DNA of 64,000 nt from Nereocystis luetkeana (taxonomy: Eukaryota > Sar > Phaeophyceae > Laminariales > Laminariaceae). Under the pieces are notes generated by a model. That model saw only the letters and a program-made list of their open reading frames with translations, was not told where the DNA came from and did not search any database. Position numbers and translations under genes: made by a program. Shown piece by piece: positions 1 through 60,349 of this stretch (within the stretch, counting starts at the first letter, position 1; the number at the start of each line of letters is the position of its first letter). The stretch covers positions 7,666,729-7,730,728 of the forward strand of contig JARUPZ010000004.1 in NCBI GenBank assembly GCA_031213475.1. Reading direction: 5' to 3'.

Positions 1-1252
1 TCCCTGGGTTCTGCAGCTAGCTTCCGAATTCAGAGTTTGTCCTCCTCATGTATACGGGATTGCTTATCTTGCATGAGGCCACACAAAGCCCGCCTTACGC
101 GCGATCGAAGTATCACTACGTAGTACCTGTATGAGGCACAGCTTGCAAATATGAGTGTCGACAAAATCCTGGATTTCACAGCCGTTCCATTGTGTTTTTA
201 ACTCTTTAAATATAAGAAGGAAAACCGCTGAAGAGCCGCGAACAAGTACGAATAAGCAGCATGGATGGCACCCAGACAGAGGAGATGTGAACCCTTTCCA
301 GATTTGATCGTGGTGAAACGCCTCGGTTGGGAGTCAGAAGACTGCATTTTGCTGTAACAGTTGGTGTTGCACAGTCAAATCAAGCATTCGGGTCTGATTG
401 ATACAAGTTTCCACGTTGATCCAACTGGCTTATGCTTTACTGCAGTTAGTTGCCTTATTTATTCGTAGTAGTAGCTGTAGATCGTGTAGTAAGCGATTGG
501 AACAAGCGCTGTCAGGTGGAAAACGCAATATTACTAGAATAAAATCAAGCCCCCAGAAACGAAGAGAAAACGTGTATCTATATATATGGCAACTAACTGC
601 TGCAAGAAAGAGACATTATGCATAAATCGAGAACGAAGAACACTCAACAATCCAAAAATTCTACATCCAGAGTTTGGCTCTTCCAACGTATCCCACCCAA
701 TCCACCCACCCACCCACCCCCACCCGCCCTTCTCGTCCCCTTCCCTTCACAAAACTTGCACCCAACCCAAAGCAAGCAAGAATAGCATCATCCTCTGATC
801 TACACCTACCTACCTGGTCCTGTCTGACCGGTCATAGAACAAGCACTGCGGCATCTACTACCGCGAGACTGTATCAAGTGAGTCCCTACACCTTTTGTCG
901 CGGCGAGGGTTGGACCGGTCGTACATAGTTTTGCAAGCATGTTGTGCGTCGGTCATATCGCCGATACGGTAGCAGTACTACTTACAGCAAGTTTCAGGCG
1001 GGTAGATCAGCGTCCACAGCGCAGTAGTAATAGTCGTGGATTTCCCGCAAGCTTTCACTGCGTTGTTGGCCGTACTATTATAGTATTATCGCTGGCATTA
1101 TTAGTAGTAGTATCACTACTTACCTGGTACCGGTATATATTACCTGGTGGTCCTCCAGTTGAGCGCGTGGATTAGCGCCCACAGTAAAGTATGATAGTGT
1201 TGTTAATAGTCGACAACTGGTATGCTTTTGGTATTTTCGCACATCAATACTA

Positions 1253-1361
1253 ATACGGGGAACCATAGTTAATAGGACCAAATATTGTTCGTAAAAATGG
1301 TCAAATATATGGGTTTTTATGTCTTCCACAGGTAGGTCCTGTTAACTATGGTCCTCCGTAG
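1253..1361. mobile_element. MITE-A copy 1, diverged
   Basis: Inverted-repeat element whose ends read roughly TTACGGGGGACC...GGTCCCCCGTAA. The inner arms continue as ATAGTTAATAGGACC and its complement, so most of the element can fold into one hairpin. No coding capacity. Ends are mutated here (CTCCGTAGTAA on the right). Confidence 0.8.
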
Positions 1362-1626
1362 TAACAGAGCTCACTCACTCACACTCGTATACTCGACGAC
1401 CTACTTATATACTTCGAAGTATATATATATATATATATTATATATATACATGAATTGCATCATTTTCTTCAACATGACGAGAGCCCACATCCAAAATCAA
1501 GTTTTTCTCATTTATTTTTGTTGTTGGGTGGGTGTGCAGTATATATATAGTACCATAAGTATCAGCTCTGTTCGTGCACGAATATGCATTTTCACGCCCG
1601 ACGATACATACTGAGGCGTTCTACGA

Positions 1627-1825
1627 TAGCATGAGAAGGAAGGAGCAAAGACAGCAAATAAATATAGTAGACAAGCCAGAAGTTGGCACAGAAAGGAGGT
1701 AGACTTGGTGCATGGGTTTCCTTTTGTTTACGAGGTTTTCTTATTTCGGGAAAGTTATGAGTGATCCATGTTGAAGATGATGCTGCACATGTGCGCATTG
1801 TCGGATGGCAAGAGAAATAATAATA
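1627..1825 (-). repeat. Repeat C copy, minus orientation
   Basis: Reverse-complement match to 2424-2545, sharing blocks such as CATTGTCGGATGGCAAGAG and GGAGGTAGACTTGGTGCATG. The end adjoins an ATAATAATA run, as in other copies, which suggests a retroposon with a (TTA)n tail. No protein was recognised. Confidence 0.65.
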
Positions 1826-1939
1826 ATAGAACAACTGTACGATATTGTTTACTACTGCTAATGAAGCTCCTTGGGGGCAATGAAGGCTAACTAAACAACA
1901 CATACATACATACATCATCGATATAGTGTGTTTTCATGG

Positions 1940-2345
1940 CATTTTTCGTTTTGAGACGTTCTGCGATATAGATAGAGAGCTTCACCCTACATTTTCTGAG
2001 ACTCCCACATGTCCCCCCAAGGTATAATGCGGCGGAATCCGACGGGTACAAACATATGAAAACAAACTGATGATATACGCATCTCGTACACGTGTACAAA
2101 CTGATGCTGCACGCATCTCGTACGCGTACGTATACGTACCGGGTACGCATTATGCTCAGCAACGCAGAGCGCGAGTTACATCCTCAGGCTCTCCGACTAG
2201 CTACCGCCTGCCCGGTAAGGATGCCGGCCGTGGTGGCTCGGAAAGTCCCCCCCCCTCCCCCCACCACCAAATGTGATACTGACTGTACCTTTACCACCGT
2301 AGAACGTCTCACGTTTCAGACTCGCCGCCATGAGGTTGCACGTCG
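1940..2345. repeat. Repeat D copy 1
   Basis: Diverged partner of 10280-10610. Both share the blocks GGTATAA(T/C)GCGG, GGCCCGGTAAGGA-like, AAATGTGATAC and AGAACGTCTCA in the same order. No coding potential or terminal repeats were seen, so the class is unknown. Confidence 0.5.
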
Positions 2346-2367
2346 GGTGAATTCATTAATATTCTTC

Positions 2368-2423
2368 TTATTATTATTATTATTATTATTATTATTATTA
2401 TTATTATTATTATTATTATTATT
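2368..2423. repeat. (TTA)n microsatellite
   Basis: About 18 uninterrupted TTA units, directly abutting repeat C at 2424. This fits a tail of that element rather than an independent array. Confidence 0.9.
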
Positions 2424-57762: not shown

Positions 57763-58419
57763 CTCTGGTGCAGTCTGAACCGCATCCCAACCAAGGTCCA
57801 AGCACCGACAGCCCAAGATGTCAGGAGGCATGTCAAGCCGCGCAAAACGTGCGCTGTCAAGGGTGTAGGGCCGAGTGTTCCATACTAAACCCTAGTGGTT
57901 TGGTGTCAGTCCAGGCATGTATGTCACGGCAAAGTTGATGTCTGTCAAGGGGTGAAAGTGCTGTCTCCTGACATCGTTGCCGACAGCGGCGAGCGGAGAC
58001 AAGACGGACCATCACCGAGATAATGTTATTATGTGTATTTGCATCATGTAGCAATGGCAGCTTTTAAAGCTGTGCCTGGTGCTTGGTGCTCCTGCTGTTG
58101 TTGTCTGCTGCATATACAGCAGTTTTCAGACGATTTCAGTACGTATTTCCTTCACCTTGATGTACCCGGTGTCTGGTTATTTATGCCGTTGTTGATCTGC
58201 TGCATCGTACTATAAACACTGGTCAGACAATATGAACATGTACTGCATCTTGAAGAAACGATCAGGCGATGGTTATGACCACCTTGATCACTCCGCTCCT
58301 CCTTCCTGTCTCCGCTTCTCTTGTCCACGTGTCTTTCGTTTCCACGTTTTGGTCACCAACGACGCCAGTTCGATTTTTTTCCCGTCCAATTCATGCTCCT
58401 CGTCCATCTTTCTTATGTT
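57763..58419. other. No gene recognised
   Basis: Short frames without motifs on both strands; no repeats noticed. Confidence 0.4.
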
Positions 58420-58560
58420 CCCTCATTAGCCGCAACTCAGATCCGGGGTCACATATTCTAGTAGACTCTTCCCCCCCCCCCCACTGCGGTAAACGCCTTG
58501 TATTTTTATCGCGAGGAGGGTTCAGCACCTTCTTCCCTCGTCGACTCGCGTCGAATCGAT
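58420..58560 (-). mobile_element. SINE-1 fragment
   Basis: CGCAACTCAGATCCGGGGTCA, TATTTTTATCGCGAGGAGGG and CTCGTCGACTCGCGTCGAAT follow the family order. It lies in the same orientation as the full copy 0.7 kb away. Confidence 0.7.
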
Positions 58561-58664
58561 ATAAGGGTTTATTACAAGAGTACGTTGGTGCACCCTGCAT
58601 CTCATCACGATGACACGGCCGCGACAACCATCATTCCAACAAGCGACAACGGCAAACGGCAACA

Positions 58665-58800
58665 GCGAAAAGAACCGCAGCGGCGGCAGCACCAGCAGCA
58701 GCGACAACAGCAGCAGCAGAAAGAACCGCAGCGGCAGCCACAGCAGCAGCGACAACAGCAACAGCAGAGCAGCAAAAGAGAGCAATGCCTACAGCAGCGG
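58665..58800 (+). repeat. CAG/CAACAG-rich tract
   Basis: Imperfect CAG, CGG and CAA triplets. The plus frame 58498-58980 through it is Gln/Arg-rich with no other support, so it is listed as repeat only. Confidence 0.75.
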
Positions 58801-59715
58801 TACATTTCTCCTTCCTCCTGCCCTCCCGTCCGGTTGAAACCCATTTCTAGTAGTTTTAATGTACTGCAGTTTAATTCCACCACTTCATCAAAAACGCCAC
58901 ATCAAAAAGAAAGCCGCCGATACAGCAGTCTCCCATCCCTCGCCCTCCCCCTCCTCATCCAAACCCCGCTTCTTGCGTAACTGAAGCATCTGTTTCTTCT
59001 TACTGCTACTGTTACTACTGCTACCACAAACTATGTACTGTTTGTGTGCAGCGGGAAAAAATATCCCAAAAAATAGGGTGAAACAAAACGTAAGAAGAAG
59101 CAAATCATAAAACAAAACGTACGTAAGAAGCAAATCATAAAAACAAACCGTAAGAAGCATATCATAAAACAAAACATTGAAGAAAAAGTACCTGTTGCCA
59201 GGTATAGGATGGTGGCATGTATCGTGGGAGAAAAACTTGAAGAAAACCAAACAAGCACAGCAGCACGTTTCCTTCCTTCTTCCTTTCCTCCACTCCTTTT
59301 TCCTTCCAACTATTGTCTTCCTCTCGATCTACTACACCTGGTGTATAGTACCCCCCCCCCTCTCTGCGCCTTCTCCAAGGTACATATGAGACGATCCTGC
59401 TGCAGTCGAGGGTCTCACGTTACGACGATCTGGCACTTCGCGAGATAATCTCGTCAAGGAATGTCAGTGTGTCCGCAAATACAATGGACGTCTGGGCATG
59501 AACATGAGTACCCAAACGGTCAATATAGTAGAGAGGACAGAGTGGCACTTGATACAAGATAAATATATATCGCGACGCACAGATTTCTCGGTTCGTACGC
59601 CACGTGTGTGCTGCGAACGACTACTCTTTTCAATATTTATATCGGTCTTCCTCTTCTGCTGCTGCCGGTGCTTCAATGGTCCGCGGCCGGAGAGCCAATC
59701 AAGAAAAAAATACCG

Positions 59716-59890
59716 AATCGATCAAATCGAACCGAATCGAACCGAATCGAACCGAATCGAACCGAACCGAACCGATTCGATCCGAACCGAACCGAATTCA
59801 TCGAACTGAATAAATCGACCAAGTCCATCAAATTAAACCGAATCAAATCGACGGAATCCATCGAATCGAATCGACGCAATCGACCGAATT
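59716..59890 (+). repeat. (AATCGAACCG)n array
   Basis: Pentamer-based repeat, AATCG and AACCG alternating, decaying toward 59890. Short SNRIEPNRTE-like frames are artefacts. Confidence 0.88.
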
Positions 59891-60349
59891 AAGGGGAGGT
59901 AAGGTCCAGCTCATTTTCCGAATCATCCGCATCCTGCTGACGATGATAGAAAAAACGGTAGACAGACAGACAGACAGGCAGGCACACGGACAAACGAGGA
60001 CAAAGGAGAATGGGGGAGGGGAGGGCGGGAGCAGGAGGGGGGGTGACGTAGAGGGGGGGCAGAGGAGCTCGGCGGCCATAAGCGCAGACATTTTAAGGGA
60101 AAACACGCAACAGGCACTGGGTATACGACATATACATGGAAACTAACTCAACCGAGCAACGAGACCCCGACCAGCCCCCGGCAACAGCGGCAGCTGTAGC
60201 AGTAGCAGCGGCATAAGAACACTTGAAACAGTCGTACTTTGTGGTATACCAGGTATACAAAATCAAACAAACGAAACACCGCTCCGGCCCTCGCCAAAAA
60301 ACCAAGAACACTACACACAAATACGTAGTTTACACACCACCTAGCTCAC

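What the first reader, a model, noticed from the sequence alone, without database searches (positions are those of the whole stretch)
1121..60255. Palindrome TACC(A/T)GGTA about 40 times, with a 16-kb gap
Exact copies at e.g. 1121, 3932, 4139, 4467, 4557, 6341, 6610, 10561, 26670, 28320, 31717, 40824, 43577, 43584, 51868, 51892, 55853, 55860, 55867, 60247. Chance predicts under one in 64 kb. Copies often pair as TACCAGGTACCTGGTA and are absent from ~10.6 to 26.7 kb, where the two main coding blocks lie. They are not part of any repeat family I see.
Basis: partly seen in the sequence, partly recalled or inferred. Interest (0 to 1): 0.75.

Follow-up and report, generated by a model that had tools for sequence, protein, structure and literature searches.

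The report
Transposon scars fill a seaweed genome
The 9-letter word seen again and again in this stretch of a probable brown-algal genome is very likely the 7-base scar left when a jumping gene cut itself out of a TA site, and so many scars have piled up that the word is about a hundred times commoner than expected across the whole genome.

Summary
TACCWGGTA occurs 36 times in the window (shuffle mean 0.49) and 182,395 times in its 465-Mb genome, against 1,744 for the reversed word. It does not behave like a maintained motif. Where a site lies in a repeat, sister copies typically lack 7 bp (TA versus TACCWGGTA): modal difference -7 at 8 of 13 testable sites and 0 at none, against modal 0 at 118 of 180 control TA-N5-TA sites. 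Sites decay like unselected DNA, stack by re-insertion at their own TA (15,917 versus 2), and share a weak target preference around TA. Best explanation: excision footprints (TA + CCWGG + TA) of a Tc1/mariner-like transposon. Two further TA words in this genome match elements found here: CTATTAATAG (22,282 versus 267), an IS630-type element and its MITE; CTACWGTAG (28,313 versus 3,124), a pogo-like element. The parent of TACCWGGTA was not found in the letters I could read. The 16-kb gap is explained by scarce good TA targets (p = 0.26). The host is probably a brown alga. The kind of scar is known; this number and 5-bp length I did not find in print.

The parts
1121..1129 (.). footprint TACCTGGTA
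3932..3940 (.). footprint TACCTGGTA
4139..4147 (.). footprint TACCTGGTA, 7 bp from a MITE copy
4467..4475 (.). footprint TACCTGGTA
4557..4565 (.). footprint TACCAGGTA
5181..5189 (.). footprint TACCAGGTA
6341..6349 (.). footprint TACCTGGTA
6374..6382 (.). footprint TACCTGGTA
6517..6525 (.). footprint TACCTGGTA
6610..6625 (.). two footprints overlapping by TA, opposite orientation
7505..7513 (.). footprint TACCAGGTA
8840..8848 (.). footprint TACCAGGTA
9131..9139 (.). footprint TACCTGGTA
10561..10569 (.). footprint TACCAGGTA
26670..26678 (.). footprint TACCTGGTA
28320..28328 (.). footprint TACCTGGTA
29899..29907 (.). footprint TACCTGGTA
31716..31731 (.). two footprints overlapping by TA, opposite orientation
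37967..37975 (.). footprint TACCTGGTA inside a repeat; 11 sister-copy alignments, modal difference 7 bp shorter
40824..40832 (.). footprint TACCTGGTA
43342..43350 (.). footprint TACCAGGTA
43577..43592 (.). two footprints overlapping by TA, opposite orientation
43722..43730 (.). footprint TACCAGGTA; its one sister alignment (74% identity) is 7 bp shorter
45949..45957 (.). footprint TACCAGGTA
46391..46399 (.). footprint TACCAGGTA
51868..51876 (.). footprint TACCAGGTA in TA repeat
51893..51901 (.). footprint TACCAGGTA in TA repeat
53099..53107 (.). footprint TACCAGGTA
55853..55875 (.). three footprints in a 7-bp ladder, mixed orientation
56478..56486 (.). footprint TACCAGGTA
60247..60255 (.). footprint TACCAGGTA
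51666..51675 (.). CTATTAATAG, second footprint type (IS630-type element and MITE); other copies at 12619, 24289, 26639, 47281
46803..46809 (.). TACAGTA, third footprint type: a 5-bp insertion inside a MITE copy (22 sister-copy alignments, modal difference 5 bp)
61550..61658 (.). 105-bp MITE, ends TTACGGGGGACCATAG, with TA on both sides; other spans begin at 4155, 7924, 25972, 40373, 45079

Best explanation
TACCWGGTA works like, and most likely is, the excision footprint of a TA-inserting DNA transposon of the IS630-Tc1-mariner superfamily. The element inserts at a TA and duplicates it. When it leaves, the staggered cut leaves end bases behind; the two overhangs anneal and are joined, giving TA + CCWGG + TA, a net gain of 7 bp. 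A 5-nt overhang CCWGG pairs with its partner except for one central A-A or T-T mismatch, which repair turns into an A-T pair. The element later hits other TAs, including those of old footprints, which makes the 7-bp ladders. Footprints are selected out of exons, where +7 shifts the frame, and otherwise drift and decay. SHOWN at the sites that could be tested: 7-bp insertion at TA. SHOWN: genome-wide number; ladders in both relative orientations; decay; target preference; two further TA words whose sequence matches the ends of elements found in this genome. INFERRED: that a transposase made this one; the overhang chemistry; that selection empties exons. NOT FOUND: the parent element.
For: Length test: of 105 query sites 13 had paralogs; modal difference -7 bp at 8, the other five at -8, -5, -5, -4 and +8, none at 0; 74 of 136 pairs at -7 and 2 at 0. 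Controls: TA-N5-TA, 118 of 180 sites modal 0 (8 at -7, not looked into); CCWGG outside the word, 65 of 93 modal 0. A stricter reading of largely the same alignments: an empty TA sister at 5 of 13 motif sites and 0 of 181 control sites. Polarity: one copy carries the 7 bp and most sister copies lack it. Number: 182,395 versus 1,744. Main product: in 294 kb, two-strand counts of TACC-n-GGTA are 190 for n = A or T (95 sites), 16 for C or G, and 16, 38, 16, 14, 18, 16 for n of length 0, 2, 3, 4, 5, 6. Ladders: 15,917 versus 2; of the 59 places listed there, counted by eye, 19 have opposite orientation (AT 14, TA 5), which simple slippage cannot give. Decay: 101 one-mismatch sites where about 49 are expected, against 95 exact; about 31 of the excess of 52 are transitions (my addition of the table). 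Target preference: R-TA-Y with A/T-rich flanks. Same-genome parallels: MITE and IS630-type element ending in TA|TTACGGRGG, its frame matching DDE_3 at 47.2 bits, two copies 99.67% identical, predicted footprint CTATTAATAG 22,282 versus 267; base before TA is C in 0.58 of TATTAATA, 0.56 of MITE ends, 0.21 of all TA. Pogo-like element with ends CAGTACCGGCC flanked by TA fits TACWGTA; CTACWGTAG 28,313 versus 3,124.
Against: No element with TACC(A/T)GG or TACC(A/T) ends was found: 339,879 bases searched for CC..GG inverted ends gave 38 pairs at 14 or more of 20; six were looked at, of which five extend beyond the TACC and one (L030) pairs ladder footprints, and another lies in a degenerate tandem repeat; nothing around 9 pogo-like hits. 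Published footprints of this superfamily are 0-4 bp and varied. Length 2 between TACC and GGTA is also above the 14-18 of neighbouring lengths (38), so there may be a minor second product or 1-bp insertions. Only 13 sites had paralogs; several lie in one MITE family and are not independent. Of 59 ladder places 40 have the same orientation, more than half, so some ladders may be slippage. C to T at the fourth base is not in excess (2 seen, 3.2 expected). The parallels are weaker at the level of single sites: TATTAATA had modal 0 at 4 of 7 sites with paralogs and TACWGTA at 9 of 14, with one clean 5-bp case.
Confidence: 0.83

Rival explanations
1. Direct insertion: an unknown activity adds the 7 bp at TA in one step, without a full-length transposon ever having been there.
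For: No parent element found in the letters read; one dominant product at very high number.
Against: TA target, TA on both sides and a palindrome-like insert are the marks of transposon excision, and two other TA words in this genome match elements found here. Most of the genome was not read.
Confidence: 0.08
2. A maintained functional word, such as a protein-binding or methylation site kept like HIP1 of cyanobacteria.
For: Palindrome-like, about 100 times over control genome-wide.
Against: Arises by insertion at the testable sites; decays with transition bias; forms 7-bp ladders; the flanking preference is that of a TA target.
Confidence: 0.04
3. Collapsed hairpin elements: a palindromic MITE with CC..GG ends is deleted by replication slippage or hairpin cutting, leaving its tips.
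For: The common MITE of this genome is a near-palindrome.
Against: Such deletions should leave varied tips, while one product dominates; no such MITE was seen.
Confidence: 0.05

Closest known systems
Excision footprints of Tc1/mariner and pogo transposons (ZB, Passer; Sleeping Beauty recalled)
   Same: TA target and duplication, a few bases of the element ends left behind; ZB prefers a palindromic AT repeat (passages seen)
   Different: Reported as 0-3 bp for ZB and 0-4 bp for Passer (passages seen); here 5 bp, one dominant product, 182,395 genomic copies
Stowaway footprints and re-insertion in a Triticeae beta-amylase intron (PMC1925063)
   Same: Natural footprints of 1-4 bp inside TA duplications; a new element inserted at the TA of an old footprint (passages seen)
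   Different: One locus in many plants there; genome-wide ladders here
HIP1 and other highly iterated palindromes of cyanobacteria (PMC4390886)
   Same: A short palindrome in high frequency across genomes (start of abstract seen)
   Different: HIP1 is linked there to DNA methyltransferases; this word arises by 7-bp insertion and decays
Mariner-Tc1 families of the brown alga Ectocarpus (PMC12477816)
   Same: 17 families, nearly 12,000 copies, most of them MITEs (passages seen)
   Different: The words footprint, excision and palindrome do not occur in that text (counts)

Membership tests
Tc1/mariner-superfamily excision footprint | Insertion at TA with TA on both sides of the residue | tested here: met
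   at the minority of sites that have paralogs (13 of 105)
Tc1/mariner-superfamily excision footprint | Residue equals the terminal bases of a transposon of the genome | tested here: inconclusive
   no CC..GG-ended element in about 340 kb of letters nor at 9 pogo-like hits; the rest of 465 Mb could not be read
Tc1/mariner-superfamily excision footprint | Usual, not defining, size: 0-4 bp with varied products | tested here: not met
   5 bp with one dominant product; range
Tc1/mariner-superfamily excision footprint | Superfamily transposases present in the genome | tested here: met
   DDE_3 in L051 over its cut-off; 28 DDE_1 matches over cut-off; 24 IS630-type matches, all under the curated cut-off. 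Genome searches with DDE_3 and Transposase_1 (whose control rang nowhere) returned none
Tc1/mariner-superfamily excision footprint | Depends on transposase activity in vivo | not testable with these tools
   needs an experiment
HIP1-like maintained palindrome | Kept against mutation | tested here: not met
   decay like unselected DNA and insertion origin; conservation between species not tested
MITE or other repeat end | Copies share sequence beyond the 9 bp | tested here: not met
   flanks show only a weak preference, at most 0.34 bit per position over 7 bases a side

The most novel reading that the evidence does not exclude
A lineage of brown algae carries a TA-inserting transposon, or an unknown insertion activity without one, that joins its cut ends so uniformly, through a 5-nt cohesive end, that it has left nearly two hundred thousand intact 7-bp scars, making transposon excision a leading source of new short sequence in its non-coding DNA.
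Probability: 0.6. Interest if true: 0.8.

Novelty: new variant of a known kind. Interest (0 to 1): 0.7.

Why it matters
Footprints are usually noted one locus at a time. Here they are dense enough (0.39 per kb genome-wide) to serve as a fossil record of excision: they count jumps and not just surviving copies, can be dated by decay, map target choice, and act as a steady source of +7 insertions. If the reading holds, an element too rare to show up in about 340 kb of sequence has changed the genome far more than its copy number suggests, and a strikingly over-represented palindrome in a eukaryote need not be a regulatory site.

Tried and rejected
Known RNA or tRNA: none in the window. Domains in six window ORFs: none at E 0.001. 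Virus link: the 16-bp ladder word had only 9 stretches in the viral contigs (records near this genome may be left out there), not pursued. Coding-block avoidance as a special feature: explained by target availability. Blunt joining of full 5-nt ends: TACCWGGCCWGGTA occurs 27 times versus 3 (by eye 10 TACCAGGCCTGGTA, 1 TACCTGGCCAGGTA, 16 mixed), a faint hint that the ends read CCAGG. Parent search by inverted ends, by long insertions in repeats and by recurring TACCW words: none. A 2.8-kb inverted-repeat insertion in L010 (6395-9204) with TACCA near its ends looked promising, but its inverted repeat runs 15 bp past the TACC, so TACC is not its end. A piggyBac-like MITE (TTAA) is unrelated. TACAGCAGTA and TAGATCATGATCTA-type words are enriched but had no paralogs to test. 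Literature: nine paper searches were answered. Of those aimed at this question, two returned no paper; for the others I saw only the listed titles and abstract starts, often a small part of the hits (20 of 217; 9 of 9; 6 of 6; 5 of 5; 12 of 38,511; 8 of 19), and none of these reports the word or a genome full of footprints. Passages were read of four papers. Preprints and most subscription journals are not held.
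Full report
WHAT WAS CLAIMED AND WHAT IS THERE. The window holds 36 exact TACCWGGTA, mean 0.49 in 100 shuffles. The genome of the window (465,085,209 bases, 1,987 contigs) holds 182,395, against 1,744 of the reversed word; with G or C in the centre, 10,882 against 1,899. In 23 stretches chosen by round coordinates there are 59 sites in 230 kb, 0.26 per kb; window 0.56, genome 0.39. TACCAGGTA and TACCTGGTA are the same duplex in two orientations.

WHAT ORGANISM. The tools name no species. The EsV-1-7 cysteine motif family matched in all 150 candidates scored, out of 1,710 candidates; a paper on Ectocarpus says this domain has proliferated in brown algae and is otherwise known mostly from giant viruses (PMC12477816, passages seen). 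A brown alga is therefore likely but inferred.

ORIGIN BY INSERTION. I compared each site with paralogous DNA in the window and 37 loci. Of 105 query sites 13 had usable paralogs. The modal length difference was -7 at 8 sites, -5 at two, -8, -4 and +8 at one each, and 0 at none. Of 136 pairs 74 were at -7 and 2 at 0. Control TA-N5-TA: 180 of 1,002 had paralogs, 118 of 180 modal 0 and 8 at -7 (those 8 were not looked into); control CCWGG outside the word: 93 of 527 had paralogs, 65 modal 0. An earlier reading of largely the same alignments gave inner lengths 2-4 for 88 of 93 motif pairs and 9 for 1,230 of 1,390 control pairs. Examples: window 37967 against L003 and L021; L009 9130 against L007; L031 592 inside a MITE. 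Some of the 13 sites share one MITE family and so are not fully independent.

A SCAR THAT DECAYS. In 294 kb there are 95 exact sites (1.8 expected). Words one letter away number 101 sites where about 49 are expected, by my addition of the table; the excess of 52 means about 6% change per position. About 31 of the 52 are transitions, and the excess is seen in all five position classes, though C to T at the fourth base is not in excess. This fits unselected sequence of mixed age.

LADDERS AND TARGET. TACCWGGTACCWGGTA occurs 15,917 times against 2. Of the 59 places listed there I counted by eye 23 AA, 17 TT, 14 AT and 5 TA. The 19 opposite pairs cannot come from simple duplication and fit a second insertion into the TA of the first; the surplus of same pairs may include slippage. 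The flanks show a weak symmetrical preference, purine before and pyrimidine after the TA, A/T at 7 bases out. With TA weighted by that preference the 16-kb gap has p = 0.26, against 0.024 unweighted.

THE SAME GENOME HAS TWO MORE TA WORDS THAT MATCH ELEMENTS. (1) CTATTAATAG, 22,282 against 267. A 105-bp MITE with ends TA|TTACGGGGGACCATAG occurs many times, and one empty site shows the TA duplication. A longer element, L051 and L052, 99.67% identical, ends in TA|TTACGGRGGCTC, matching 24 of the first 33 bases of the MITE end; the two copies stop being alike within two bases of that end. Its left end was not reached. Its 483-residue open frame matches DDE_3 at 47.2 bits, although the six-frame search with DDE_3 had found none. 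Base before TA is C in 0.58 of TATTAATA, 0.56 of MITE ends, 0.21 of all TA. In the length test TATTAATA had paralogs at 7 sites: modal 0 at 4, -4, -6 and -9 at one each; a 6-bp insertion shows at one group of related copies. (2) TACWGTA: CTACWGTAG 28,313 against 3,124. L050 holds a pogo-like (DDE_1) element with inverted ends CAGTACCGGCC flanked by TA, so its CAG/CTG ends predict TACWGTA; L039 shows the same end. In the length test TACWGTA had modal 0 at 9 of 14 sites and one clean 5-bp case, window 46803.

MECHANISM. By analogy TACCWGGTA is what remains when a TA-inserting element with CCWGG or CCW ends leaves. A 5-nt overhang CCWGG would pair with its partner but for one A-A or T-T mismatch, giving the A-T centre; a 3-nt CCW overhang joined by its last base would give the same. 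Two-strand counts of TACC-n-GGTA are 190 for n = A or T, 38 for length 2, and 14 to 18 for lengths 0 and 3 to 6, so one product dominates with perhaps a minor second one; full blunt joining is seen 27 times genome-wide. In published work on ZB and Passer footprints are 0-3 and 0-4 bp (passages) and in Stowaway loci 1-4 bp with re-insertion at an old footprint's TA (passages). The Sleeping Beauty product TAC(A/T)GTA is recalled. The number needs no large element family: rare jumps over very many generations, kept by drift, would suffice (inference, not computed).

WHAT IS MISSING. The parent with CC..GG ends was not found in the letters I could read, which are well under a thousandth of the genome. 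Until it is found, direct insertion by something else stays possible. None of the paper listings I saw reports the word, but those are partial.

VERDICT. A real, very strong genome-wide signal; best read as transposon excision scars; a new variant of a known kind by its number, dominant product and 5-bp length.

Noticed in passing
L051, L052 (G000 C10:3951900-3955500, C2:6044700-6048300): IS630/Tc1-type element with a 158-aa and a 483-aa frame, two copies 99.67% identical, so probably moved recently; its left end was not reached.
   Followed up: partly
L050 637-2824: Pogo-like element with 24-bp inverted ends alike at 23 of 24; its transposase match carries a stop.
   Followed up: partly
L013, L022, L023, L028, window 4746: Second MITE family, ends (TTAA)CCCTTTTAGAACCGCAGTCCCG, looks piggyBac-like (inferred from the TTAA).
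   Followed up: no
L010 6395-9204: A 2.8-kb insertion relative to L017, with about 215-bp inverted-repeat arms; kind unknown.
   Followed up: partly
window 54520, L016 1995, L031 3196: Repeat resembling a tRNA-derived SINE (TAGCTCAG...GGTAACACC; resemblance recalled) with different small insertions at the same point between copies.
   Followed up: no
window 3147-3786, 41836-42127, 63319-63644: Long (TAG)n arrays, the commonest simple repeat of the window.
   Followed up: no
window 39359-39551: Array of a 32-bp unit containing CCCTAACCC, like internal telomere repeats.
   Followed up: no
L027 3268-7070, L013 3659, window 36070: TAGATCATGATCTA and TAGATCATCTA palindromes, possibly a further TA footprint; no paralogs to test.
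   Followed up: partly
294 kb of sampled stretches and window: TACAGCAGTA 26 versus 0.4 expected after masking simple repeats; origin unexplained.
   Followed up: partly
L028 about 1922-1935 against L007 and L009: One TA site is empty in one copy (L007), carries TACCAGGTA in another (L009), and CTATTAATAG with a TCTAG duplication in a third (L028).
   Followed up: partly
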